NCBI RefSeq assembly: GCF_003967075.1
Contig: NZ_AP018664.1
Location: 3,560,001 to 3,624,000 of the forward strand
From: Sphingobium amiense
Lineage (GTDB): Bacteria > Pseudomonadota > Alphaproteobacteria > Sphingomonadales > Sphingomonadaceae
Reading direction: 5' to 3'
Length of the DNA stretch: 64,000 bases
The notes beneath the pieces were generated by a model. It saw only the letters and a list, made by a program, of their open reading frames with translations, ran no database searches and was not told the origin of the DNA. The position numbers were made by a program, and so were the translations under genes. Each line of letters begins with the position of its first letter. The first letter of the stretch is position 1. Positions 1,291 through 13,331 of the stretch are shown one piece after another.

Positions 1291-1367
<77 letters not shown>

Positions 1368-1445: not shown

Positions 1446-1499
1446 CTCGTCAGGCTCATAACCTGAAGGTCGCAGGTTCAAATCCTGCTCCCGCAACCA
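1446..1499 (+). repeat. 54-bp exact copy of the tRNA-fMet 3' end (candidate att site)
   Basis: Positions 1446-1499 repeat the tRNA sequence 1314-1367 base for base, from the D-arm/anticodon boundary through the CCA end. No 5' half is present, so it is not a second tRNA. Such a partial copy downstream of an intact tRNA is the usual trace of integration into a tRNA 3' end. It marks an element boundary. Confidence 0.85.
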
Positions 1500-3210
1500 T
1501 CTTTACCGGCGTCGATTGCAAGTTGTGATCGATGCCGGTCCCCGCAACCATCTTTACTTGCTCGGGCAACAAGTGAAGATTAGATCCAGCCCCCGCAACC
1601 ATCTTTACTTGCGAAGACCCCGCCCCCGAGGCGGGGTTTTTCGTTTGCGTAGAAATCGTAAGGATTCCAGCAAGATCGCCTTGAACGTCGATCTCCACCT
1701 TGCCCTCAACAGGCGTCAGCACGATCTGATCTACCAACGAGCGAATGGTGTCCGCTGCCTCTACCCGCTTGCCCTCTTCTTCATCCTGAAGCGACTCGTA
1801 GAGCTGCTGGATGCGCTTGCGGTATTGCAGCGCCATGCTCGGGTGCAGCAGGGGCGGCGGCTCGTCAGCTTCGGCCAGGAACAGTTCCAGTTCCTTCTTC
1901 CGCTTTTCCAAGCTCACCATCTTCGCATTGAGAGCGTCTGCAGCGCCGCCTTTAAGGATCAGGTTGAGAAGGGTTTCGAGTTCCCGATCAATCTTCGCGA
2001 TCTCGGCTTCCGCTGAGGCAATACCGACGCGGCCTTCCATTCGTAGGCGGTTCATCTCTTGCGTGAACACCTCGCAGAAATGGGCAAACAGCTCGGGGTC
2101 AACGAGTCTGGTGCGCAGCGCATTCAGCACGCGCGATTCCAACTCGTCGCGACGGATATTGACGCGGTTGTCGCAGGTGCCCTTGTTTCGAGCTGTAGAG
2201 CATCCGATCAGCGTTGCCGAGATCGCGGAGTACCCGCCACCACAGCATGAACATTTGGTGAGGCCCGAGAAGAGGTATTTGGGGCGCCGCCGATGATTGA
2301 CGGTGCGGACATCTGTGCTTCCGTTGTCGTCGCGGGTGAGCTTGTTCTTCTCCTGCCGTGCCTTCACGGCATTCCAGAGATCGTCGTCGAGTATCCGGAG
2401 CTCTGGCGTCTCCTGGATGACCCATTCCGATTCCGGGTTGGGGCGCGCCTGCCGCTTTCCGGTGTTCGGGTCCTTTACGAAGCGCTGCCGGTTCCAGACG
2501 ATCTTGCCGACATACATCTCATTATTGAGGATGCCGTTGCCACGCTTCGGGTTACCGTTGATCGTGCTGAAACCCCAGTCGCCGCCCGAAGGGGACGGAA
2601 TGCCGTCCTTGTTCAGTGCAAAGGCGATGGTCTTGGCCGACTTGCCGGCGGCGTAGTCGTGGAAGATGCGGCGAACGACGGCGGCCTGGTTTTCGTTGAT
2701 GGTGCGGTCGCCGCGAATGGGTTCGCCATTGGCGTCCAGCTTCTTGACCACATCGTAACCATAGGAATTGCCGCCACCCGATTTGCCAGCCTCGACACGG
2801 CCGCGCTGGCCGCGGCGGGTCTTGTCGGCAAGATCCTTGAGAAAGAGGGCATTCATTGTGCCCTTGAGGCCGACATGCAGATGGCTGACCTCGCCCTCCG
2901 ACAGGGTGAACATCTTCACATCCGCATAGGACATGCGTTTGAAGATTCCGGCGATGTCTTCCTGATCACGCGAGAGGCGATCCATTGCCTCTGAGAGGAT
3001 CACGTCGAAACGACCGGCCATGGCGTCGGTCATCAGAGCCTGGATACCCGGACGGATCAGCGAAGCGCCAGAGATTGCGTGGTCGGTATATTCTTCGACG
3101 ACGTGCCAGCCTTGCTTTTCGGCGTGGAGGCGGCACATGCGAAGTTGGTCGGCGATGGAAGCGTCGCGTTGATTGTCGGAAGAATAACGGGCGTAGATCG
3201 CGACTTTCAA
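1456..3210 (-). CDS. Large serine recombinase (site-specific integrase)
   Basis: A 584-residue large serine recombinase, the probable integrase of the element. An N-terminal resolvase domain (about 1-150) has the YARYS motif with catalytic Ser10. A recombinase domain (about 160-280) follows, then a zinc ribbon (Cys320, 322/323, 337, 346) and a charged coiled-coil stretch (about 395-450). The last 51 residues are three 17-residue units (534-550, 551-567, 568-584) encoded by antisense copies of the tRNA 3' end. The final segment, GAGFEPATFRL, is antisense tRNA and not a protein domain. The gene points at the tRNA and its stop lies inside the att copy, so the integrated form reads through the attachment site. 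The native C-terminus probably ends near residue 530. Confidence 0.9.
   Translation of the reverse strand: MKVAIYARYSSDNQRDASIADQLRMCRLHAEKQGWHVVEEYTDHAISGASLIRPGIQALMTDAMAGRFDVILSEAMDRLSRDQEDIAGIFKRMSYADVKMFTLSEGEVSHLHVGLKGTMNALFLKDLADKTRRGQRGRVEAGKSGGGNSYGYDVVKKLDANGEPIRGDRTINENQAAVVRRIFHDYAAGKSAKTIAFALNKDGIPSPSGGDWGFSTINGNPKRGNGILNNEMYVGKIVWNRQRFVKDPNTGKRQARPNPESEWVIQETPELRILDDDLWNAVKARQEKNKLTRDDNGSTDVRTVNHRRRPKYLFSGLTKCSCCGGGYSAISATLIGCSTARNKGTCDNRVNIRRDELESRVLNALRTRLVDPELFAHFCEVFTQEMNRLRMEGRVGIASAEAEIAKIDRELETLLNLILKGGAADALNAKMVSLEKRKKELELFLAEADEPPPLLHPSMALQYRKRIQQLYESLQDEEEGKRVEAADTIRSLVDQIVLTPVEGKVEIDVQGDLAGILTISTQTKNPASGAGSSQVKMVAGAGSNLHLLPEQVKMVAGTGIDHNLQSTPVKMVAGAGFEPATFRL
1490..1606 (+). 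repeat. Array of three degenerate tRNA 3'-end copies, 51-bp period
   Basis: The ten bases CCCGCAACCA followed by TCTTTAC occur at 1490, 1541 and 1592, exactly 51 bases apart. The bases upstream of the second and third copies still resemble the T-arm of the tRNA (about 18 of 25 identical each by hand alignment) while the rest has diverged. Read on the minus strand each unit encodes 17 residues of the recombinase C-terminus (VKMVAG in all three). Confidence 0.8.
1617..1641 (+). terminator. Rho-independent terminator, rightward
   Basis: ACCCCGCC (1617-1624) pairs with GGCGGGGT (1630-1637) around a 5-base loop, followed by five T. It reads away from the rRNA/tRNA genes, so it is probably the original rrn terminator. 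It now lies within the 3' end of the convergent recombinase ORF. Confidence 0.75.
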
Positions 3211-3675: not shown

Positions 3676-3693
3676 TTGTATTTAGAGATACAA
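3676..3693. promoter_or_regulatory. Palindromic operator of the TacA/TacT-like module
   Basis: TTGTAT (3676-3681) and ATACAA (3688-3693) form a perfect inverted repeat with a 6-base spacer, 30 bases upstream of the antitoxin start. Ribbon-helix-helix antitoxins repress their own operon at such sites, so this is the likely operator. Confidence 0.55.
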
Positions 3694-3723
3694 GATGCCA
3701 TCTTCCGACCAAGGAGAATCGCC

Positions 3724-4023
3724 ATGGCCAACACTGCCGAACGCAAGGAATATCCGATCTCAATGCGTCTGCCCGAGGCCGATGTTGCCATGATCGATCG
3801 TGCTGCCAGCCTGCGCGGCCGCTCGCGCACCGATTTCGTGCGCGACGCCGCTGTGCGCGCGGCCGAGGAGGTCGTCATGGAGCAGGGCCTGATCCGGATG
3901 AGCCCGGAAGGCTTTGCCCAGTTCATGGATGTGCTGTCGCGTCCGGTTGCTCCTGTTCCGGAGATGGTTGAAGTGCTTAAGCGGCCTGCGCCGTGGGAGC
4001 CCGGCTACGCAGCGAAACAGTAA
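3724..4023 (+). CDS. DUF1778 (TacA-type) antitoxin
   Basis: A 99-residue DUF1778 antitoxin. A ribbon-helix-helix DNA-binding part lies at residues 10-50 (ISMRLPEADVAMIDRAASL), followed by a helical toxin-neutralising tail ending in WEPGY. The start at 3724 is chosen for its ribosome binding site AAGGAGA at 3711-3717; an earlier in-frame ATG at 3676 would overlap the operator. In this family the antitoxin blocks a GNAT toxin that acetylates aminoacyl-tRNA and represses the operon with it. The toxin gene follows after 4 bases. On a mobile element the pair probably acts as an addiction module. Confidence 0.9.
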   Translation: MANTAERKEYPISMRLPEADVAMIDRAASLRGRSRTDFVRDAAVRAAEEVVMEQGLIRMSPEGFAQFMDVLSRPVAPVPEMVEVLKRPAPWEPGYAAKQ

Positions 4024-4027
4024 TCCC

Positions 4028-4537
4028 TTGCTGCTTTCAGGACCCGAGCTGCTTTCCGCCGCCCACGATGTTTCCCAGTTTTCCTGTGGCAAGCCGACGC
4101 TCGACCACTGGCTGAAGACCCGCGCGCTCTCCAATCAGCAGAAGGGCTTTACCGCCGTTCTCGTCGTGCATGAGGCAGGGCGTGTGGTGGGATATTACGG
4201 CCTTGCACCAACAGCCGTTGTGCCATCGGTGCTACCGCGCTCCATCCGGACGGGACAGCCGCCTAATCCAATTCCCTGCATGCTGCTTGGTCAGCTCGCG
4301 ACCGATATCGGCTCGGCCGGGTTGGGTATCGGGACTGGCCTTGTGAAGCACGCCCTCCAACGGTGCGTTCAGGCCGCATCGCTGATCGGTGGGCGGGCAT
4401 TGATGGTCAACGCCGTCGACGGGGAGGCTGCCGAATTCTGGCAGCGCCGAGGATTTGAGCCTACCAGAGATGATGAACTGGTCCTGTTTCGCTCGATCAG
4501 CGATATTGCTGCGTCGCTCCGTGAGGCTGGAAGGTGA
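4028..4537 (+). CDS. GNAT-family toxin (TacT-like acetyltransferase)
   Basis: A 169-residue GNAT acetyltransferase with the TacT start SGPELLSAAHDVSQFSCG, a core strand VLVVHEAGRVVGYYGLAP and the acetyl-CoA loop region GSAGLGIGTGLVKHAL. TacT toxins acetylate the amino group of charged tRNAs and stop translation. No ATG is in frame after the antitoxin stop; TTG at 4028, 4 bases downstream, gives the length expected for the family, and translation is probably coupled to the antitoxin. The insertion sequence begins 32 bases after its stop. Confidence 0.85.
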   Translation: MLLSGPELLSAAHDVSQFSCGKPTLDHWLKTRALSNQQKGFTAVLVVHEAGRVVGYYGLAPTAVVPSVLPRSIRTGQPPNPIPCMLLGQLATDIGSAGLGIGTGLVKHALQRCVQAASLIGGRALMVNAVDGEAAEFWQRRGFEPTRDDELVLFRSISDIAASLREAGR

Positions 4538-4569
4538 ATAGCCCCATGTTTGGTGGACGTCTTCCTTGC

Positions 4570-6193
4570 TAACCCGTCTTATTCATGACGGCGCGTTTGC
4601 GAGGCTGGCGGGTGTAGCATAAGCCATTGATGTGGCGTAGGATTCGGTTGCTTAGGCCAGTCCTGCAGACAACATCTCGCGAGCCACACCCGCCATGATC
4701 GACGATACGCTGCTGCCGTTCTCTTTTCCAGCCGTTCGCGCCAAGAAGATCACGGCTGCCTTCGACGGCGGTCGCATCACCTCGGATGCCGGGATCATGC
4801 TTTTGGCCGCCGCCGAGCGGCGCCTGAAGCTGGCCGAGAAGCTCGCTGCCGCCATCCGCGACCCGCGCGATCCGGCGCGTGTCAGGCACAGCTTGACCGA
4901 CATCCTGCGCGCCCGCATCTTCGCCATTGCCTGCGGCTACGAGGATGCCAACGACCTCGACCGCCTTCGCAACGATCCGGCCTTCAAGCTCGCCTGCGGT
5001 CGGCTGCCCGACAGCGGTCAGGATCTGTGCTCGCAGCCGACCTGCTCGCGTCTGGAGAACCTGCCCGACCTCAGGACCGTCATCCGCCTCGGCCGGGTTC
5101 TGGTCGACCTGTGGCTGTCGAGCTACCCTGCGCCGCCGAAAAGCGTCACCCTCGACATCGACGACACGCTCGACGTCGTTCACGGCCATCAGCAACTCTC
5201 GCTCTTCAACGGCCACCACGACGAACGCTGCTTCCTGCCGATCCACATCTACGACGCCGCCACTGGACGCCCGGTCGCCATGATCCTGCGTCCGGGCAAG
5301 ACCCCGTCGGGCAAGGAGATCCGTGGTCATCTGCGCCGGCTCGCGCGGTGCATCCGTGCCCGCTGGCCGGACACCCGCATCCTCGTGCGCGGTGACAGCC
5401 ATTATGGCCGGGTCGAAGTCATGGCCTGGTGCGAGGAAAACGCGATCGACTACGTCTTCGGCCTTGCTGGCAACAAGGTCCTGAAGCGTCTCGTTGACGC
5501 GAGCGCCGACGACATCCGCACCCGCCGCGCGCTCGAGCAGAAGCCGGTGCTGCGGGGCTATGTCGAGACCCGCTACGAGGCCAAATCCTGGAAGGCCGAG
5601 CGCCGCGTCGCGGCCCGCATCGAGGCGACCACGATGGGCCTCGACATCCGCTTCGTCGTCACCAACCTCGCCAAAGGCTCCGCTGAGCACATCTACGACG
5701 TCGTCTACTGTGCGCGCGGCCAGGCCGAGAACCTGATCAAGATGCACAAGAGCCAACTCGCCTCCGATCGAACCTCCTGTCGCCGGGCCGTCGCCAACCA
5801 GATGCGCCTCGTTCTCCACACCGCCGCCTACTGGCTCATGCTCACGCTGCGCGAGGCGGTGCCCGCTACCCATCATCTTGGCAAAGCCGAGTTCGCCACG
5901 CTGCGGCTCAGGCTTCTCAAACTCGGCGCCCGTGTAACCGAAACCGTCTCGCGCATCCGATTGGCATTCGCCGCCGCCTGTCCCGAGGCAAGTCTGTTCC
6001 GTTCCATTGCCGCCAAGCTGCAGCCGGCAGGACCTTGAGACGACCAGGGCGGAATGCCCCCGCAACCAAGCCCGTCAACCTCCAGCGCGTTCAACAAGTC
6101 CAGCCTCGCCCGCGGTGAAAGAGACGCCTCGACTGCCCGCGCACCATCGATCTGCGTCATCCGCAAAGCCGTGCTCATGAATAGGACGGGCTA
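4570..6193 (+). mobile_element. IS1380-family insertion sequence
   Basis: A 1624-bp element bounded by 19-bp inverted repeats: TAACCCGTCTTATTCATGA at 4570-4588, and its complement with two mismatches at 6175-6193. It contains one transposase gene covering most of its length. Flanking tetranucleotides (TTGC and AATT) do not match, so no target duplication is visible. The left flank is the toxin gene and the right flank an integrase fragment, so the element may have mediated a deletion. Confidence 0.88.
4695..6038 (+). CDS. IS1380-family transposase
   Basis: A 447-residue DDE transposase, full length for the family. The start MIDDTLLPFSFPAVRAKKIT and DGGRITSDAGIMLLAAAERR are the typical N-terminal signature. 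Catalytic acidic residues are plausible in LDIDDTLD (about 153-160) and LVRGDSHYGR (about 233-242), with a Glu in the ARGQAENLIK segment (about 341-350). No frameshift is seen, so it is probably active. A long minus-strand ORF over the same bases (4569-6065) is a codon-bias shadow. Confidence 0.92.
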   Translation: MIDDTLLPFSFPAVRAKKITAAFDGGRITSDAGIMLLAAAERRLKLAEKLAAAIRDPRDPARVRHSLTDILRARIFAIACGYEDANDLDRLRNDPAFKLACGRLPDSGQDLCSQPTCSRLENLPDLRTVIRLGRVLVDLWLSSYPAPPKSVTLDIDDTLDVVHGHQQLSLFNGHHDERCFLPIHIYDAATGRPVAMILRPGKTPSGKEIRGHLRRLARCIRARWPDTRILVRGDSHYGRVEVMAWCEENAIDYVFGLAGNKVLKRLVDASADDIRTRRALEQKPVLRGYVETRYEAKSWKAERRVAARIEATTMGLDIRFVVTNLAKGSAEHIYDVVYCARGQAENLIKMHKSQLASDRTSCRRAVANQMRLVLHTAAYWLMLTLREAVPATHHLGKAEFATLRLRLLKLGARVTETVSRIRLAFAAACPEASLFRSIAAKLQPAGP

Positions 6194-6204
6194 AATTGAG
6201 GCAA

Positions 6205-6416
6205 GGACCTGCGCCGGACATTCAAGACGGTGACCGGCAAGGCGAGGATCTCGAAGGAAATCCGCGACCGCCTCCAGAACCACGCGTTGCAGGATGCCAG
6301 CTGCGAGAAGCATGACTGCTAGGCACTACATGGTGGAAAAGCGCGCCGACATGACGAAAAGGGAAAAGTTCGTCTCCGCCACGCTTGCCAAGAAGTGCCG
6401 GAAGGGCATGCAATAG
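6205..6416 (+). pseudogene. Tyrosine integrase, C-terminal remnant
   Basis: Reading from 6205 gives DLRRTFKTVTGKARISKE and IRDRLQNHALQD, the conserved end of phage-type tyrosine integrases around the catalytic HxxR/Y segment. A stop appears after KHDC, but the next frame continues with HYMVEKRADMTKREKFV to a stop at 6416, so there is at least one frameshift. Everything N-terminal is missing at the IS1380 right end. It is the tail of an older integrase. Confidence 0.75.
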
Positions 6417-6434
6417 CCCGGCGTTCGACGGCAC

Positions 6435-7328
6435 TCAGATCCTGTCTGAAAACCGATCATAAGCATCGATCCGCCGAACCGGGGGATCGACCTCATACCG
6501 ATAGATTTCCGTTCTCAAGAACCGTAGTTCGGCCTCGCACTGAGCCTCGGGAACGTCAATATACCAGGCGCGCGGCTGCGGGCCGGGATCGCCGTTCCAG
6601 CGGTACCCCCGCGCTTTAAGGACATCCTTGAGGTCAAAGGGCGCGTTCTCCGCCCAGATTCGCCAAGAAACGGTACGAGCGCCGTCCAGGAGACGGCTGA
6701 GACCTGTAGCGCCAGATCGGGGCAGCCACATCGCCAACAACTCGACCGTAGCAAGACAGTCGTGCATCGCGCGGTGGCGGTCGTAGAAGAAGCCGGCGGC
6801 CTGAGCGAGATAGGCGAGTTTCGTGCCCTCGAACCCCTCTGCTGCCCAATCGATCTGGCTGAGCGAGCATGCCCACGGCTTCGTCGAGAACACGTCGTTG
6901 AATCGTTCGAGGAAGCGGCGGTCGAACGCCGCATTGTGCGCGATGACGAGCGAAGCCGGCGCTGCGAATGAGGCTACCGCTGCGGGATCAACAATCTGGC
7001 CGGCCACCATCTCGTTGGTGATGCCCGTGATCCCGATGATTTCCGGGGCGATAGGCTTGCTCGGCTGACGCAGCCCTTGGAAGCTGTCGCCCACGCTGAA
7101 AATGGTGCCATCCAAGCCGTAGTTGAATGGTGTCATGGCGAGTTCGATGATCTCGTCGCGCTGAGGGTCGAGCCCCGTGGTCTCCACATCGACCACCAGG
7201 CCGAGGCGCAGCGGCGTGCCTGGCGGAGGAACGATGCGAGGGCGCGGTTTGAGACGCCGGATGACCCGGTAGTCTCCCGTGGCCTCCAGCGCCTGCGCCA
7301 GGGTCTCCAGATGGTCAGAAGATGTCAT
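6435..7328 (-). CDS. DEDDh-type 3'-5' exonuclease (DnaQ-like)
   Basis: A 297-residue protein with a DnaQ/RNase T-like nuclease domain at about 40-205. The metal ligands can be seen: Asp47 and Glu49 in VDVETTGLD, Asp136 in AHNAAFD, His185 and Asp190 in HRAMHD, the DEDDh arrangement. The C-terminal ~90 residues (WRIWAENAPFDLKDVLKARG onward) match the tail found on many DnaQ-like exonucleases. It is the last gene of the minus-strand operon and overlaps herA by 14 bases, so it is translated with it. Its placement implies a role in DNA degradation or repair linked to the SIR2-HerA pair. It could also be a passenger. Confidence 0.87.
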   Translation of the reverse strand: MTSSDHLETLAQALEATGDYRVIRRLKPRPRIVPPPGTPLRLGLVVDVETTGLDPQRDEIIELAMTPFNYGLDGTIFSVGDSFQGLRQPSKPIAPEIIGITGITNEMVAGQIVDPAAVASFAAPASLVIAHNAAFDRRFLERFNDVFSTKPWACSLSQIDWAAEGFEGTKLAYLAQAAGFFYDRHRAMHDCLATVELLAMWLPRSGATGLSRLLDGARTVSWRIWAENAPFDLKDVLKARGYRWNGDPGPQPRAWYIDVPEAQCEAELRFLRTEIYRYEVDPPVRRIDAYDRFSDRI

Positions 7329-9345
7329 CGTCTGAAGCTTCGTTTACTGCCATCGGCTCCCCTCCAGCGGTATCGGCCGGAGCGAGTCGAATGTCGGCGG
7401 CTCGACCTTCTTCGTGGAACCACAAATCGACCACGGCGGTATCGTCGCTGCGCGGCCGCGGTGATGCCTCCCGCACCCTGAATGTCGTCGGGAGATTGAC
7501 CGATGTTCCGAACACCAGCGCGTGCTGCCGAGGCAATGACGGCAAACGCTTCAAGACCGAATCCGAGATGAACGGCGTCATCTGCCGAATCTGAGAAAGA
7601 TCGTCGGGGTTCTGGATGCGGTGAACCAGGAAATTGGAGCACTGGCTGAGAACCGTCTTGGACAGTTCACTCGGGCGTTGCGATGCCAAGAGCACGAACA
7701 TGCCGTACTTGCGCCCTTCCTTGGCGATGCGCTCGAATATCTTGGTTGCGTCGATGGAAAACCGGGAGGGCGTTGAGGCAACGTACCTGTGAGCCTCTTC
7801 GAGGAGCAGATGTATCGGGAAACGGTTTCTTGGTTCCGCATGGCGAAGGAACCGAAAAAGCATGCGTGCGATGACCGCACTGACCAACTCAACGATTTCA
7901 TCTTCGACGGAGTTCAGATCAATGATAATGACTTGATTGCGTTTGGTGAACGCTTCGCCAACAACCCTTCCCAGACCGACGATGTTGGTCAAGAATTCCA
8001 GATCGCTTACAGCCGCACCAACGTCAGCTCCTTCGTGACGTAAAAAGGCATATTCGGTCCTCTCCTGGAGAGATCTGAGCCGCGTGACCATGGAAGAGCA
8101 GTAATCTCGGATTTGGCGGTTGCCGTGAGCCTCCTCATAAAGGATCGCGAAATCCAGACATTCGTGCAGCTCATCGAAAGAGAACGGCGTCCGATCGTAG
8201 GCTGGTAAGGGAGCATCTTCCCGGAGCTTCTTCCTTACTTCATCCAGAAATGCCGATTGGTTGTTGCCAGAAAAATTTCCGTATTGAAAATTCGGATTGA
8301 AGCGGTTCAACAACGCCATATTCAGATCGTTCGTCGGATACTTCTGAAGAAGAGAAACGACGCGCTGAAACTTCGACACTGGGGAGTCGCCATCCGCACC
8401 TCGAAAGCACTCGATGATGCAAGTGGCGACAAAGTGCTCGCGCAGAGCCAGAGCGTCTGGCGTGTTGGCATGAAAGAGACTTGTCAGACCTAACGCCGTC
8501 CGAAGGACCGGCAGTTGCGTTCGCTCGCTCGCCTGCAAAAGCAGTTCCCACTCTGCCATTTCCAGGAACCAATGCGGCATCCGAAAGCCAGCGGTCGTCC
8601 CATCAAGGATTACGCGATGGACGCCGATGCCGCCGTCTTTTGCCAAAGGAGAAAGCGCCTCGTGATACTCGCCATTCACGTCGAAGACGATAAACGTCGC
8701 TCCGCGAGCGTGATGTTCGTCCGGTTTGCTGAAAAGGGACTGCAAGACCGAGGCGACCGTGCAGGATTTACCGCTGCCGGTATTGCCCAGGACCGCGACA
8801 TGACCGCCGAAGAACTCGTTCAGACGAACTTTGACGTCGTAGTCCTCGAACACCACCGACTTGCCGATCGGTAGAACCCGATAGCGCGTGGCCCCTTCGG
8901 GTTGGCAGGCGCCGCCATCCGGGCCGACTGACGGCTCGACGGCGGCCTCGGTCTCAAAGATGCGATCGAGCTCGCCATCCAGCGCATACAGTGCGTCCGC
9001 ATACAGAGACGGGAAAACCGACACACCGAAGCGGAACGCGCCGCCGCGCATCGGCAACATGCCGACGGGCACCACGTCCAGATATTTCGAGGAGCCGGCC
9101 CGGTCGAAATCGCCCCGCTCGGAAGGCGTGCTCGCGTCGCGCTCACGCAGGCCGACAACCTCGACCACGACATATTCCGACTGCGACGGAATCATCAGGA
9201 ATGATCCCAGTCGCGCCACATAATGCACGTCGTCGAAGCCGACGACCGTGAAGTTGTCGGTGCCGACATGCATCTCGACAACAAAGCGGTCGGCCGCAAC
9301 CGAGACCACCTTGCCGATCGCCCGCTTGCGATCGTCGTGGCTCAT
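7315..9345 (-). CDS. herA: HerA-family ATPase
   Basis: A 676-residue FtsK/HerA-type hexameric ATPase. A beta-barrel HAS domain occupies about 1-130, then Walker A GNTGSGKS (187-194), a HerA-type FIVFDVNGEY (218-227), a late acidic Walker B LLLEEAHRYVAS, and an arginine-rich C-terminal core (ASQRPSELSKTVLSQCSNF). HerA translocates on double-stranded DNA and in bacteria often pairs with a nuclease or NADase effector. Here its start overlaps the SIR2 stop by 4 bases (ATGA), and a DEDDh exonuclease follows with a 14-base overlap. The SIR2-HerA pairing is an established anti-phage system. Confidence 0.9.
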   Translation of the reverse strand: MSHDDRKRAIGKVVSVAADRFVVEMHVGTDNFTVVGFDDVHYVARLGSFLMIPSQSEYVVVEVVGLRERDASTPSERGDFDRAGSSKYLDVVPVGMLPMRGGAFRFGVSVFPSLYADALYALDGELDRIFETEAAVEPSVGPDGGACQPEGATRYRVLPIGKSVVFEDYDVKVRLNEFFGGHVAVLGNTGSGKSCTVASVLQSLFSKPDEHHARGATFIVFDVNGEYHEALSPLAKDGGIGVHRVILDGTTAGFRMPHWFLEMAEWELLLQASERTQLPVLRTALGLTSLFHANTPDALALREHFVATCIIECFRGADGDSPVSKFQRVVSLLQKYPTNDLNMALLNRFNPNFQYGNFSGNNQSAFLDEVRKKLREDAPLPAYDRTPFSFDELHECLDFAILYEEAHGNRQIRDYCSSMVTRLRSLQERTEYAFLRHEGADVGAAVSDLEFLTNIVGLGRVVGEAFTKRNQVIIIDLNSVEDEIVELVSAVIARMLFRFLRHAEPRNRFPIHLLLEEAHRYVASTPSRFSIDATKIFERIAKEGRKYGMFVLLASQRPSELSKTVLSQCSNFLVHRIQNPDDLSQIRQMTPFISDSVLKRLPSLPRQHALVFGTSVNLPTTFRVREASPRPRSDDTAVVDLWFHEEGRAADIRLAPADTAGGEPMAVNEASDDDIF

Positions 9346-10664
9346 GCCTCGCCATCCTTTGTCTCGTCGCCCCTTTTCGGCGCCAGCTCCGACAACACCT
9401 TGCGGACGGCGTCATCAATCCTGTCGCTGGGGCGCTGGGGCATGAAATGCTCGACGATCATGTCGAAGTAGTGCGCCCTCGTCCCGTCGGAAGGGCCATT
9501 GCCTCCAATGATCCAAATGCGCGGATCGCGCAGCGCCCGCAGCTTGGCGATCTCTCCCTCCGTGTCAGGCGCCGCAAAGATCACCAAGCGGAAGGTCGGG
9601 ATCGTCAGAGCCTGATAGATGATGTTGTTCAGGTGCTCGTCGCCGAAGGCGTAGCCGGCCGTGATGAGAACGCTCTGCTCGCGCACGATCCGGGACTGAA
9701 ATTCCCGGAACAGGTCTGCGTAGGGCGAGCCGAGCGAAGAGTTCTGCTTCGCCGGCGTCGGATAGATCAGCATCTGGTTCGTGGATTCCGGTGGCCAGAC
9801 TTCCTTGATCGGGAAGAGACCATGATCGTCCTCGGTCCAAGTGACCGAACCATGCAATTTGCAGAGATAGACGAAGGCGTCCACGGCGGTCCACTTGCGG
9901 CTGGCGACGTCGAGCTGCTCGGCCAGAGCATAGCGGAAGATCGCCGGGTTGAAGCGGCGTTCCACGACGCCGGAAAAACCGTTGGCATAGGGAATGCCCA
10001 GGCGATCCATCGCCAATTCGCTGAAATGATCGTAGTTGGTCGTGAACACCCAGGGCCGGGGCAAGGACCGATCGCGTAGGACCAGTTTCTTGTAGAAACG
10101 CTCGTAGAGGTCGCGCACGGTCGTGTCGCCCTCCGTGGCGAAGGCCCCTTGGGTGACACGGGTCCATAGGAAGTCCTGGACCTTCTTGATGATGCCGTCG
10201 AGAACAGCGCGATAGGGGTGAAGATCGGGATTCTCGCTCTGGCGCAGCACGAACCGTTGCGCGAACAGCACCTCCATCAAGCGTTCCAGGTTACGGCTGT
10301 AATCCTTCGCCAGGTCGACTCCGAGCGCGTCGAGATAGTCGAGTTCGTCTTTGGTCAGCCGCCACGGTGCCGGTACAGCGCCGGCTGTTGGCGGATCGCT
10401 GTAGAATCCCGCCGCGCGTGCCTCGATGGTTTCGCCGCAAAACTCCTTGGCCAGCGGCGCCATGGTCGCAATGCCGAGTTCCTTTTTGTCCTTCATCAGG
10501 GAAGAACATCCGGCGCCGAGCAGAAATGCGATGTTCTTGGCGTTCACGGCCTCGGAAATCGCCTTGCGGGCGCTCTCGATCCCCTTGTTCCAGTCCAGTT
10601 CAGATGGCTCGGCATCGCCGTCCCGCAGAAACTGGAATTTTCGCTCTTCTTCGACTTCGCTCAT
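9342..10664 (-). CDS. SIR2-domain protein (probable NADase effector)
   Basis: A 440-residue SIR2-like protein. Motifs visible: FLLGAGCSS (48-55, NAD-binding Gly-Ala-Gly), FTTNYD (207-212) and KLHGS with His271 (269-273), the three sirtuin signatures. The C-terminal part (about 310-440) continues the Rossmann fold (SVLITAGYAFGDEHLNNIIY). Defence-associated sirtuins of this type deplete NAD+ on phage infection, and SIR2-HerA complexes have been shown to combine NADase, nuclease and ATPase activities. It starts 23 bases after the AbiEii stop and overlaps herA, so all five genes probably share a transcript. Confidence 0.9.
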   Translation of the reverse strand: MSEVEEERKFQFLRDGDAEPSELDWNKGIESARKAISEAVNAKNIAFLLGAGCSSLMKDKKELGIATMAPLAKEFCGETIEARAAGFYSDPPTAGAVPAPWRLTKDELDYLDALGVDLAKDYSRNLERLMEVLFAQRFVLRQSENPDLHPYRAVLDGIIKKVQDFLWTRVTQGAFATEGDTTVRDLYERFYKKLVLRDRSLPRPWVFTTNYDHFSELAMDRLGIPYANGFSGVVERRFNPAIFRYALAEQLDVASRKWTAVDAFVYLCKLHGSVTWTEDDHGLFPIKEVWPPESTNQMLIYPTPAKQNSSLGSPYADLFREFQSRIVREQSVLITAGYAFGDEHLNNIIYQALTIPTFRLVIFAAPDTEGEIAKLRALRDPRIWIIGGNGPSDGTRAHYFDMIVEHFMPQRPSDRIDDAVRKVLSELAPKRGDETKDGEA

Positions 10665-10687
10665 ATACCCCCGGTCCTCCCAGTTTC

Positions 10688-11704
10688 TTACTTGGCTGCT
10701 CTGTTCGCGCGCGCGGCTATATCAGCGCACTGCGCCATGAGCGCTTCGAACGGCTCCTCGTCGTCGAAGAGCAGTCCATCCTCAACCATGCGGGCATAGT
10801 CATCCTCCAACGCCTTCGCGCCATCGCCGACCGGCACGAGTTGCAAGCCGCCGCTGACAGCCGCTGCATAGTCGATCGGCGTGTGGTCGGCGGCCTTCTC
10901 TGCGAAGAACATCGACTTGTGCCGAGCGACAGCGTTGGCCAGGTCGCGATCGGCAAAAGCGGCTTCCGCGAAGCCGGCTTCGTCCAGTCGGACAACATCG
11001 TGCCAATGTCGCGCGAAGCGGTCGCCGCGCAGCCGCTCCTGGAGGCAGAAGACGTGGATGGCGGTCGCCTTCTCCCAGAACGTCCGCTCCGCGTGCATGA
11101 CGCGCGGCCGCGCCGTCGGGAAGAGCAGCCCCTCGATCAGGCCGGCCGCGTCGCAGACGACGTCGCGCAAGCTCGCGGGTTCGCCCGTCGAGCGCGCGCC
11201 GAACTCCAGCATGACGCTTGGAGCCACATAGCCGGACCCGGCTGCGGTCGCCTCATAGTCGATGAAGAGCTTCTCATCCTCGACGCGGACGGCCGCCGCC
11301 AGACCTTCGACGGCCAGTGCGGTCTCGATCACAGGCTGCACGGTTTCCGCGACCCATGCCGGTAACCGCCGACGGACCTCGCTGGACCAGCGCTTTTCCT
11401 CGCTTCGTGTCTTCGGCAGACCCTCGCCATTGTCCCCAACCAGATCGGGCGCAATCGCCCGAATGTCGTAGGTCAGATCCACGTCCTCCGAAAACCGGCG
11501 AATGACCTGATAGGCTTTCGACAACGACGTGCCACCCTTGAACACCAGATGCTCGCCGAGCGGTGCCGCGTAGAGCGTCGCCAGCGCCCACACCACCCAC
11601 ACATCCTTTTCGAGAAGATGGGTGGGACGACCCGAACGGTCGGCGACGACGCTCAACGCGTCACGCCGATCCTCGGCCGAAAGCTGGAGGAAAACGTCAG
11701 CCAT
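10688..11704 (-). CDS. AbiEii-like nucleotidyltransferase toxin
   Basis: A 338-residue nucleotidyltransferase of the AbiEii/AbiGii toxin family. The catalytic signature is FKGGTSLSKAY (55-65) followed by FSEDVDL (71-77), the G-S-x(n)-DxD pattern with Asp74 and Asp76. AbiEii toxins transfer nucleotides, in known members onto tRNA 3' ends, and cause growth arrest. It overlaps the upstream AbiEi antitoxin by 8 bases. The SIR2 gene starts 23 bases after its stop. Confidence 0.88.
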   Translation of the reverse strand: MADVFLQLSAEDRRDALSVVADRSGRPTHLLEKDVWVVWALATLYAAPLGEHLVFKGGTSLSKAYQVIRRFSEDVDLTYDIRAIAPDLVGDNGEGLPKTRSEEKRWSSEVRRRLPAWVAETVQPVIETALAVEGLAAAVRVEDEKLFIDYEATAAGSGYVAPSVMLEFGARSTGEPASLRDVVCDAAGLIEGLLFPTARPRVMHAERTFWEKATAIHVFCLQERLRGDRFARHWHDVVRLDEAGFAEAAFADRDLANAVARHKSMFFAEKAADHTPIDYAAAVSGGLQLVPVGDGAKALEDDYARMVEDGLLFDDEEPFEALMAQCADIAARANRAAK

Positions 11705-12290
11705 AGGCCGCCTTTCCGACGCTCTGCGCGAGCCATGTCGGAAGCTGCGGCGCGGCGGCGACCAGTTCGCCGAACACGCCGGGCGGCATCTTCCGCTTCA
11801 AGGTCGTGAGCGCGGCCTCCGCCTTTTCGGGGCCGAGCCAGGCCAGCGCCCGCACGGCCTCGCCTGCGGGGCGGTTGGCCAGGGCCAGTTGCCAGCGCGG
11901 CGCGTGCCGCAATTCGACGACCTGCTTGCCGAGGTGTATCTTTCGGCTGCGTCCGGAGGTCAGATAGACCGAGCGGACGGGCACCTGCGTCGTCAAGCCA
12001 AGCGCGTTCGCCGCGGCGGCTCCGTTCGAGACGATGATCTCCCCTTTTTGGGTCGCGAGGGCCTCGACAGCCTGCTTGACCGAAGGTGCGCGCGTGCCAA
12101 ACCGACTGGCGATGGGGCGCAGATAGACGCCACGACCGGCGCGGATGAGCTGCCCGCGCTCGGACAGACGCGACAATGCCTGATCCACGGCCGCCCGGTT
12201 TCCGAGGTGGAGCAGGCCCTTGGCGGACACGGGCATCCCTTCGGGAAGTCCCGTCGCATGTGCCAGAATCTGTTCGGTCAGCCGTGTCAT
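11697..12290 (-). CDS. AbiEi-like antitoxin (DUF6088)
   Basis: A 197-residue antitoxin of the AbiEi/DUF6088 type. The N-terminal winged helix-turn-helix (about 15-65: SAKGLLHLGNRAAVDQALSR, GRGVYLRP) would bind its own promoter. The C-terminal AbiEi_1 region includes VYLTSGRSRKIHLG (about 128-141). It is the first gene of the five-gene operon, so its repressor activity would set expression of AbiEii and possibly of SIR2, HerA and the exonuclease. Its stop overlaps abiEii by 8 bases. Confidence 0.85.
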   Translation of the reverse strand: MTRLTEQILAHATGLPEGMPVSAKGLLHLGNRAAVDQALSRLSERGQLIRAGRGVYLRPIASRFGTRAPSVKQAVEALATQKGEIIVSNGAAAANALGLTTQVPVRSVYLTSGRSRKIHLGKQVVELRHAPRWQLALANRPAGEAVRALAWLGPEKAEAALTTLKRKMPPGVFGELVAAAPQLPTWLAQSVGKAAYG

Positions 12291-12443
12291 CGTCTTTCTC
12301 CTGTTGGAAATATACGCGGGTTTCTGACAGTTTTCAAGGAAGCGCAGGGGAACATACCGAATAGGGGGAAAGCCTTCCCCTGCGGCCGAGCCTTGGTCTC
12401 TACCTACCCCTTCTGCGGGGAGATCCCCGCAACGCCCCCTTCA

Positions 12444-12525
12444 GAGTGAGAGTGCGGACGGATTTTCCGTGACGGGTTAAGAGCTGGAGGAGAGGCTTCC
12501 GGCACCCGTCGCGGAGATCATCCCG
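12444..12525 (+). promoter_or_regulatory. Structured 5' leader A (upstream of the first ArdC)
   Basis: A leader with three parts: a hairpin ACGGA/TCCGT (about 12458-12470), an outer stem GACGGGT (12471-12477) with ACCCGTC (12504-12510), and inside it GCTGG (12483-12487) with CCGGC (12499-12503). The purine-rich GCGGAG ribosome binding site follows directly, then the ATG at 12526. Three other genes in the window carry the same architecture with altered but still pairing bases. Confidence 0.6.
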
Positions 12526-13263
12526 ATGGCCAGACAGGGTCGTAACCTCGCGGAAGGTGGCGCGCGCAGCAACCTTTACGACGACATCACCAACAAGATC
12601 ATCGCCGAGCTGGAGCAAGGGCGGTTGCCATGGGTCCAGCCCTGGGGTGCGTCGCCTGATACCGCCCCGCTGGGCCTGCCGAGAAATGCTTCAACCGGCC
12701 GGTCCTATTCCGGCATCAATATTCTCATCCTCTGGGGGGCTGTCATCCAGCATGGTTTCCCCGCTCAGGCGTGGCTGACGTTCCGCCAGGCGCTTTCGCT
12801 TGGCGGCAATGTCAGGAAGGGCGAACGTGGCACGACTGTCGTTTATGCCGACCGTTTCACCCCCGAGGACGAGAAGCGCCGTGCCCGCGAAACGGGTGAG
12901 GATGCGCATGCCATTCCGTTCCTGAAGCGGTTCACGGTCTTTAACGCCGCGCAATGCGATGGCCTACCCGATGAGATCACGGCAGTCGCGCCGCCACCGC
13001 CGCCGGGCCTTATCGAACCTCAGGTCGAGGCGTTGATCCGGGCCACCGGCATCGACTTCCGTATTGGCGGCAATCGCGCCTTCTATATGCCGTCGCTCGA
13101 CTATGTGCAGGTGCCGCCTCCGCAAGCCTATTTCGAGCCGATCAACTGGCACAGGACGGCCCTGCATGAACTGGGGCACGCCAGCGGCCATCACAGCCGC
13201 CTCAACCGCGATCTGACCGGCTCGTTCGGTTCGAAGAAATACGCCTTCGAGGAGATGATTGCC
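12526..13263 (+). pseudogene. ArdC-like antirestriction protein, 5' part (interrupted)
   Basis: The first 246 residues of an ArdC-type antirestriction protein. An N-terminal ssDNA-binding domain (about 15-145, with LPWVQPWGA, GRSYSGINILIL and NVRKGERGTTVVYAD) is followed by a metallopeptidase-like domain with HELGH (214-218). The reading frame leaves ArdC sequence after FEEMIA and enters the inserted element; the ORF itself runs on to 13302 with 12 foreign residues. The missing 74 residues lie at 19858-20087. ArdC proteins coat incoming single-stranded DNA and protect it from restriction during conjugation. The fragment keeps the peptidase motif but lacks the C-terminal helices. Confidence 0.9.
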
Positions 13264-13331
13264 TTATCTGGACAGTCTGCACCGTGCCTCACGCACACTT
13301 GAACGGTATGTTTTGGCGCAACGCAGGGGGG

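What the first reader, a model, noticed from the sequence alone, without database searches (positions are those of the whole stretch)
6435..12290. Five-gene composite defence operon: AbiEi-AbiEii-SIR2-HerA-DEDDh exonuclease
All five genes are on the minus strand with overlaps or gaps of 24 bases or less (8-base overlap, 23-base gap, 4-base overlap, 14-base overlap), so they are probably one transcript. SIR2-HerA and AbiE are each known defence or TA systems. Their fusion into one operon headed by the AbiEi repressor and ended by a DnaQ-like exonuclease is not a standard arrangement I know. It may be a layered system: NAD+ depletion and DNA cleavage, a tRNA-modifying toxin, and an exonuclease that finishes degraded DNA.
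Basis: partly seen in the sequence, partly recalled or inferred. Interest (0 to 1): 0.78.

Follow-up and report, generated by a model that had tools for sequence, protein, structure and literature searches.

The report
Swappable toxin-antitoxin head on defence operon
A five-gene bacterial operon that probably defends against viruses turns out to be assembled from exchangeable blocks: a probably self-repressing toxin-antitoxin block sits at its head, and related copies of that block sit at the head of several unrelated anti-virus systems in other bacteria.

Summary
Confirmed: AbiEi-AbiEii-SIR2-HerA-DEDDh exonuclease, minus strand, with the stated overlaps and gaps. The order recurs in 19 of 80 genome loci fetched with SIR2 and on plasmids of three alphaproteobacterial orders. 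The operon is modular. (1) Promoter-AbiEi-AbiEii is a ~1.65-kb cassette: in six pairs of loci it is 82-94% identical while both flanks are at or near background. It heads SIR2-HerA ('Nezha'), Gabija, Hachiman and other cores; 14 of 22 sampled AbiEii loci have a recognised defence core, 8 have no intact one. (2) A 10-bp inverted repeat over the -10 box (0-2 mismatches) precedes abiEi in all 22 loci aligned; of 21 matches in 397 genomes, 20 adjoin abiEi. (3) In L203 Gabija stands in place of SIR2-HerA while AbiE and exonuclease stay. Best explanation: an AbiEi-repressed transcript with a portable type IV toxin-antitoxin head, a replaceable NAD-depleting core and an accessory exonuclease. Regulation and phage defence are inferred, not shown. 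Ten open-access searches showed no such report. New variant of a known kind; interest 0.72.

The parts
12301..12337 (-). Promoter-operator of the operon: -35 TTGAAA (12337-12332), 17-nt spacer, -10 TATATT (12314-12309); inverted repeat CTGTCAGAAA-N10-TTTCCAACAG (12330-12301), right arm next to the Shine-Dalgarno
   Evidence: Present with 0-2 mismatches in 22 of 22 abiEi upstream regions aligned, whatever the core; the window copy has 2 mismatches to the perfect repeat. Binding of AbiEi is inferred.
11697..12290 (-). abiEi (DUF6088): antitoxin/repressor, 197 aa
10688..11704 (-). abiEii: nucleotidyltransferase toxin, 338 aa; D74, D76, K212, D236 present
10688..12337 (-). Exchangeable AbiE head cassette (from the -35 box to the abiEii stop, about 1.65 kb)
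   Evidence: homology between loci with different cores begins at about -47 from the abiEi ATG and ends near the abiEii stop
9342..10664 (-). SIR2: probable NADase effector, 440 aa; N210 and H271 present
7315..9345 (-). HerA: ATPase/translocase, 676 aa; Walker A K193, Walker B E516
8146..8505 (-). Dimorphic HerA segment (aa about 281-400): two alleles 31-37% identical to each other in otherwise similar operons
   Evidence: 6 of 24 HerA compared carry the other allele
6435..7328 (-). DEDDh 3'-5' exonuclease (NF006615 family), 297 aa; D47, E49, H131, D136, H185, D190
   Evidence: AlphaFold2 model mean pLDDT 87, best structural matches are DEDDh exonucleases
12526..13302 (+). ardC-like antirestriction gene, divergent from abiEi; its 3' end changes ancestry at about 13263
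4573..6190 (+). IS1380-family element (transposase 4695-6038) downstream of the exonuclease, flanked by CTAA (4569-4572 and 6191-6194); absent at this place in the near-identical L024

Best explanation
This is a modular anti-phage operon driven from one AbiEi-repressed promoter. Block 1, the head, is a portable type IV toxin-antitoxin cassette (promoter-operator, AbiEi repressor/antitoxin, AbiEii nucleotidyltransferase toxin). Block 2, the core, is an exchangeable defence module, here SIR2-HerA (Nezha): HerA rings probably scaffold and activate SIR2, which depletes NAD+ on infection. Block 3, the tail, is a DEDDh exonuclease that serves translocase- or helicase-containing cores (SIR2-HerA or Gabija), probably by trimming 3' DNA ends. 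The head does two jobs: it holds the whole operon at a low autoregulated level, so that loss of AbiEi (host shut-off or plasmid loss) raises core and toxin together; and it makes the costly defence locus addictive and hard to lose. Shown by sequence: gene order, active-site residues, conserved inverted repeat at the promoter, block exchange. Inferred: repression, co-transcription, toxicity, NADase and exonuclease activity, phage protection.
For: Gene order, overlaps and family assignments. Recurrence in 19 of 80 genome loci and three plasmid records. AbiEii at E<=1e-80 in two genome draws (385 and 397 genomes): by my reading 22 distinct loci, 14 followed on the same strand by recognised defence genes: SIR2-HerA 6, Gabija 3, Hachiman 1, AddBA-like 1, DruE/Dpd-like 1, PDC-S32 1, Ppl-like ATPase 1. 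Core swap: window and L203 are 87% identical over 10700-13253 and 6414-7332, with GajA-GajB (904 and 796 bits) where the window has SIR2-HerA (likewise L040 and L203). Head exchange: in six pairs the cassette is 82-94% identical with flanks at 55-65% (shuffled means 56-59%); shared-flank controls 85, 91, 83 and 69%. Inverted repeat in 22 of 22 aligned; each of the 14 AbiEii cassettes of the 397-genome draw carries it, and 20 of 21 sites adjoin abiEi. An AbiE pair with no BLAST similarity to the window's occupies the same slot in L071. Catalytic residues present in 22 of 22 scored SIR2, HerA and exonuclease genes; AbiEii residues in 27 of 27 except position 149 in L199.
Against: Eight of the 22 AbiEii loci have no intact defence core after them: 4 nothing recognised, 3 with a broken AbiEii, 1 (L207) with a degraded Ppl-like gene. 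Most SIR2 rows lack this AbiE (59 of 80, 3 of these at contig ends) and 30 of 80 lack the exonuclease although the contig continues, so the core does not need either. Ten further exonuclease loci that I fetched (L215-L224) have none of my query cores beside them. In L246 and L247 AbiEi has the inverted repeat but no AbiEii was found, so the toxin is dispensable in some heads. Three of the twelve flanks of the six pairs are slightly above the highest shuffle (63 over 61, 61 over 59, 65 over 62%), and one shared-flank control is only 69%. L030's exonuclease is frameshifted. SIR2 and HerA fall below NCBIfam's equivalog cut-offs (138 of 500, 216 of 800 bits). The window's inverted repeat has two mismatches. 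Nothing was measured.
Confidence: 0.7

Rival explanations
1. AbiE is only a selfish addiction cassette that lands in front of, and is kept by, mobile defence operons; it stabilises the locus but plays no part in defence.
For: AbiE with nothing recognised downstream exists (G260, G176, G413, G607; plasmid loci L174, L180, L181, L185); S. agalactiae AbiE provides plasmid stabilisation (section heading seen among the passages of PMC3985639); the same slot is taken by another TA pair (DUF1778-GNAT, 5 of 80 rows).
Against: A free addiction cassette need not sit as the first block of the transcript with spacings of about -40 to 150 bases to so many different cores, nor should AbiEi with its inverted repeat persist where AbiEii is gone (L246, L247).
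Confidence: 0.38
2. One reading: all five proteins act as one layered pathway (NAD+ depletion, DNA cleavage, tRNA modification, exonucleolytic clean-up).
For: The catalytic residues of AbiEii, SIR2, HerA and exonuclease are kept together in the five-gene loci scored, and the order is found across many bacterial families.
Against: Every block is found without the others: SIR2-HerA-Exo without AbiE, AbiE-SIR2-HerA without Exo (L063), AbiE with Gabija, Hachiman and others.
Confidence: 0.15
3. Plain defence-island clustering: independent genes brought together by shared mobility, with no functional link.
For: The block lies among mobile genes: a recombinase-family gene and a duplicated tRNA-Met end to the left, IS1380, ArdC, and a tyrosine recombinase to the right.
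Against: Same-strand order with overlaps, repeated in many genomes; block edges that coincide with gene and promoter boundaries; two AbiE lineages in the same slot.
Confidence: 0.07

Closest known systems
SIR2-HerA (Nezha, GAO_19)
   Same: Adjacent SIR2 (N210/H271) and HerA (Walker A/B) genes; similar to the chains of entry 8yhx (E 1e-38 for SIR2, 4e-47 for HerA)
   Different: Below NCBIfam equivalog cut-offs; preceded by AbiE and followed by a DEDDh exonuclease. The passages I read of PMC11559045 and PMC11514479 treat SIR2-HerA as a gene pair
AbiE type IV toxin-antitoxin system
   Same: Repressor gene then NTase gene; inverted repeats around the promoter (PMC3985639, passages)
   Different: Described there as bicistronic; here it is the first block of longer defence operons, and its inverted repeat is one 10-10-10 palindrome over the -10 box rather than 11-bp arms 27 bp apart
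Gabija, Hachiman, Druantia/Dpd-like systems
   Same: The cores found behind the same AbiE cassette
   Different: They are different from the window's core; that these systems are usually described without AbiE and without this exonuclease is recalled, not from a call
Modular defence hotspots in genomic islands (PMC12629846)
   Same: Well-defined places with changing defence content (passages)
   Different: There hotspots of islands vary; here the blocks of a single operon, promoter included, are exchanged near gene boundaries

Membership tests
SIR2-HerA (Nezha) | SIR2-like gene followed directly by a HerA-like gene | tested here: met
SIR2-HerA (Nezha) | NADase residues Asn/His and HerA Walker A/B present | tested here: met
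   N210, H271, K193, E516 in 22 of 22 scored loci
SIR2-HerA (Nezha) | NCBIfam equivalog cut-offs (NF042942/NF042943) | tested here: not met
   138 of 500 and 216 of 800 bits, so it is not a member of those two equivalogs but of a divergent subfamily. PADLOC SIR2 and HerA models match at 796 and 989 bits
SIR2-HerA (Nezha) | 12:6 complex, NAD+ hydrolysis, phage protection | not testable with these tools
   Needs biochemistry and phage plating
AbiE type IV TA | AbiEi-family gene directly upstream of an AbiEii NTase gene | tested here: met
   (8-base overlap)
AbiE type IV TA | NTase motif G-S and D-x-D | tested here: met
   27 of 27 for K56-S60, D74, D76
AbiE type IV TA | NCBIfam TAA_AbiEi equivalog (NF047376) cut-off | tested here: not met
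   28 of 150 bits; Pfam DUF6088 is met (87 of 25 bits) and PADLOC AbiEi gives 218 bits
AbiE type IV TA | Inverted repeats at the promoter of abiEi | tested here: met
   sequence only
AbiE type IV TA | Toxicity of AbiEii, neutralised by AbiEi without binding | not testable with these tools
   Needs expression assays
DEDDh 3'-5' exonuclease (NF006615) | Catalytic residues and family score | tested here: met
   430 of 207 bits; 22 of 22; L030's gene is frameshifted
Gabija (core of L203) | GajA and GajB side by side | tested here: met
   904 and 796 bits

The most novel reading that the evidence does not exclude
The AbiE cassette is a general plug-in control head of bacterial immunity: one self-repressing promoter with its toxin, passed among unrelated defence systems (SIR2-HerA, Gabija, Hachiman, Druantia-like and, without the toxin, Lamassu-like) as a unit, so that phage interference with host expression derepresses whichever core is plugged in and at the same time frees a second-line toxin. 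AbiEi would then be a common infection sensor and switch rather than only an antitoxin.
Probability: 0.3. Interest if true: 0.88.

Novelty: new variant of a known kind. Interest (0 to 1): 0.72.

Why it matters
TA systems and defence systems are often near each other, but whether the TA part does anything for the defence part is an open question (recalled). Here the same promoter-repressor-toxin unit, 82-94% identical in six pairs of loci with unlike neighbours, is found joined to different cores. These natural swaps make the question directly testable: same head with different cores, same core with different heads, heads without toxin. If, as I recall, defence finders call AbiE, SIR2-HerA and Gabija as separate systems without this exonuclease, they split what looks like one operon and miss a recurrent third component.

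Tried and rejected
Chance adjacency: rejected by recurrence. Exonuclease as a random plasmid gene: the family is common on plasmids (387 records), and in L176, L178 and L179 its neighbours are not known defence cores; in 10 of 10 further loci of the class draw that I fetched (L215-L224, from 19 positive genomes) none of my query cores lies beside it (the neighbours of two of them, L216 and L217, were scanned and gave a RecD-like and a weak subtilase match). Its presence alone therefore proves little; what counts is 43 of 80 SIR2 rows with it directly after HerA and its place beside GajA-GajB in L172, L177 and L203. Phage context: viral contigs gave 3 SIR2 relatives above 45% identity of 20 and one AbiEii relative; the inverted repeat had no exact match there. 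Neutral decay as cause of the sharp cassette edges: unlikely for the high-identity pairs, because three of four shared flanks stay at 83-91% (the fourth, window-L019, is 69% with a 77% cassette); for pairs near 70-75% identity it remains possible. HerA as simply variable: the difference is two discrete alleles in one segment. The exonuclease's C-terminal part was not assigned: the 50 matches shown were to DEDDh exonucleases or proteins that hold such a domain. The AbiEii tree is a quick tree with 9 of 44 inner branches starred, and L199, L200 and L186 are long branches. Dropped rows: one search kept 47 AbiEii rows (coverage over 80%, identity over 45%, identical sequences once; L211 fell out because its AbiEii is frameshifted, and the row with its core label is the degraded L207); one search kept 80 SIR2 rows (coverage over 75%, identity over 44%, identical sequences once). 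Loci for (22 loci; 18 loci; 11 pairs) were chosen by me; one search used 17 of its 18 loci (L198 has no AbiEi) and left out pairs of two lone-AbiE loci, and its right edges for L211 are measured from a frameshift stop.
Full report
Observation. Profile searches confirm AbiEi (DUF6088), AbiEii, SIR2, HerA and a DEDDh exonuclease of the NF006615 (PRK09182) family. SIR2 and HerA match the chains of the solved entry 8yhx.

It recurs. A tblastn of SIR2 against plasmids and a megablast of the region found the same block on plasmids of Haematobacter (Rhodobacterales), Novosphingobium (Sphingomonadales) and Niveispirillum (Rhodospirillales). A scan of genome contigs with a nine-sequence SIR2 alignment kept 80 loci, the best of 210; in 19 of the 80 the full order AbiEi-AbiEii-SIR2-HerA-exonuclease is present, counting L027 (contig ends in the exonuclease) and L030. 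L024 (Sphingomonas laterariae) is 99.97% identical to the window over 6190-13263 and lacks the IS1380 copy at this place.

It is built of blocks. On 80 distinct SIR2 rows (window, plasmid, genome and viral-contig loci) the slot directly upstream holds the window-lineage AbiE in 21, another AbiE lineage in 1 (L071; AbiEi 312 bits in PADLOC, AbiEii 127 bits in Pfam, no BLAST label from the window's AbiE), a GNAT of a DUF1778-GNAT pair in 5, type III restriction-modification in 3, the exonuclease itself in 2, other or nothing in 45, and the contig end in 3. Downstream of HerA the exonuclease is present in 43, an AddB-AddA-like pair (PD-(D/E)XK protein and UvrD-PD-(D/E)XK protein) in 2, nothing similar in 30, and the contig ends in 5.

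The AbiE head is portable. AbiEii at E<=1e-80 was sought in 385 genomes of the class and 397 of an order. By my reading this gives 22 distinct loci (G775 repeats G671). What follows AbiEii on the same strand: SIR2-HerA-exonuclease in 6 (G000, G175, G334, G386, G634, G651), Gabija in 3 (G318, G421, G491), Hachiman in 1 (G633), AddBA-like in 1 (G004), a DruE-like protein plus a Dpd/Drm-like helicase in 1 (G440), PDC-S32 in 1 (G162), a Ppl-like ATPase in 1 (G703, AbiEii frameshifted; 'OLD992' in my scripts), a degraded copy of that gene in 1 (G561), nothing recognised in 4 (G260, G176, G607, G413), and 3 with a broken AbiEii and nothing recognised after it (G247, G671, the second G413 copy). Plasmids add Hachiman (HamA 374 bits, HamB 1664 bits), a split Gabija (GajA 220 bits), DUF4238 and a UvrD helicase behind the same head, and also lone AbiE. 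On the AbiEii tree (47 rows, 10 core labels) the labels need 13 changes where 9 is the least possible; SIR2-HerA alone needs 4, of which starred branches force 3.

The clearest swap is L203. Against the window it is 87% identical over 10700-13253 (ArdC, promoter, AbiEi, AbiEii almost to its stop) and 86.5% over 6414-7332 (exonuclease), while in place of 7333-10699, which is SIR2-HerA, it has GajA-GajB. Against L040 the same two stretches are 91% and 87% identical.

The edges of the head are sharp. Over 130 pairs of 17 loci, homology starts at a median of -47 from the abiEi ATG (115 pairs between -70 and -40), which in the window is the first base of the -35 box, and ends at a median of -16 from the abiEii stop (93 pairs between -40 and +15). 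For six pairs with unlike neighbours on both sides the cassette is 82-94% identical while the 150 bp on either side are 55-65% identical against shuffled means of 56-59%; three of these twelve flanks are slightly above the highest shuffle. Where a flank is shared it is 85, 91, 83 and 69% identical. One further pair (L211 and L174) keeps 83% downstream, which suggests that the 'lone' AbiE of L174 still has a remnant of the Ppl-like core.

The operator. Upstream of abiEi all 22 loci aligned share a TTGnAA-like -35 box and CTGTCAGAAA-N10-TTTCTGACAG with 0-2 mismatches, with the -10 box inside the spacer and the right arm next to the Shine-Dalgarno. In the window it lies at 12301-12330 with two mismatches in the right arm; no other copy is in the window and none is expected by chance. 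In 397 genomes the pattern with up to 2 mismatches occurs 21 times in 20 genomes, against 1 control site; each of the 14 AbiEii cassettes of that draw (G775 and G671 being copies) has one, and 20 of 21 sites adjoin an abiEi gene or fragment (19 seen, one; the exception is L234). L225, L227 and L233 are full-length abiEi matches without abiEii nearby; behind two of them stand a DUF5131/PDC-M30-M41 pair (L246) and an SMC/LmuB-like plus DUF3223 pair (L247). So the inverted repeat plus AbiEi is the most constant part, and even the toxin can be missing. In Streptococcus agalactiae AbiEi represses its own promoter through inverted repeats (PMC3985639, passages); I infer the same here for the whole operon: on the minus strand of 6100-12700 the scan found only this promoter match (10 of 12) and one weaker match inside HerA at 7950 (9 of 12).

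How it may work. SIR2-HerA of E. [quoted passage not shown] AbiEii is a GTP-binding nucleotidyltransferase (PMC3985639, passages); tRNA as target is recalled from the related MenT toxins. The exonuclease model has a DEDDh fold with ExoX, DnaQ and TREX1 among the matches, and it accompanies cores with a translocase or helicase. The likeliest scheme is a low autoregulated supply of a costly core, boosted when AbiEi is lost, with AbiEii as addiction and second line. These steps are inferred.

Prior art. Ten full-text searches of open-access PMC showed, in their listings and in the passages I opened, no paper describing AbiE at the head of SIR2-HerA, Gabija or Hachiman operons, or this exonuclease as their partner. 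I read passages only, of PMC11514479, PMC8649781, PMC12839542, PMC12629846, PMC8436566, PMC3985639 and PMC11559045. Most subscription papers and all preprints are outside that library.

Limits. The genomes of the draws are unnamed; the two draws may overlap in species; core names are PADLOC/Pfam assignments and my own short labels; several loci are from metagenome-assembled genomes; nothing was tested at the bench.

Noticed in passing
window 8146-8505 (HerA aa 281-400): HerA comes in two alleles of one internal segment, 31-37% identical between and 88-100% within groups, in operons otherwise similar (6 of 24 carry the other allele): possible target of phage inhibitors or part of the sensing surface.
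   Followed up: partly
window 1314-1367 and 1446-1499: A perfect 54-bp direct repeat of the tRNA-Met 3' end next to a recombinase gene (1456-3210, minus strand; its relative in L011 is annotated 'recombinase family protein', serine type by recalled motif): looks like the attachment-site scar of an integrated element.
   Followed up: no
window 3676-4537: DUF1778-GNAT toxin-antitoxin pair beyond the exonuclease, kept in L011, L013, L024 and others; a distant pair (37-41% GNAT) sits directly before SIR2 in L075, L076, L079, L083 and L092.
   Followed up: partly
window 13239-13302: ArdC changes ancestry at about 13263: upstream it matches the defence block, downstream the integrase cluster of Sphingobium plasmids.
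   Followed up: partly
L063-L067 and L069, 4704-19245 in L063: A longer composite, near-identical in several Alphaproteobacteria: TIR protein, unknown, AbiEi-AbiEii, SIR2-HerA, AddB-like, AddA-like.
   Followed up: partly
L246 and L247: AbiEi with its inverted repeat but without AbiEii, heading a DUF5131/PDC-M30-M41 pair and an SMC/LmuB-like plus DUF3223 pair: AbiEi as possible stand-alone regulator.
   Followed up: partly
L172 and L177: The exonuclease directly upstream of GajA-GajB on a Rhizobium and a Sphingomonas plasmid (GajA 1019 and 1032 bits): a possible third Gabija component.
   Followed up: partly
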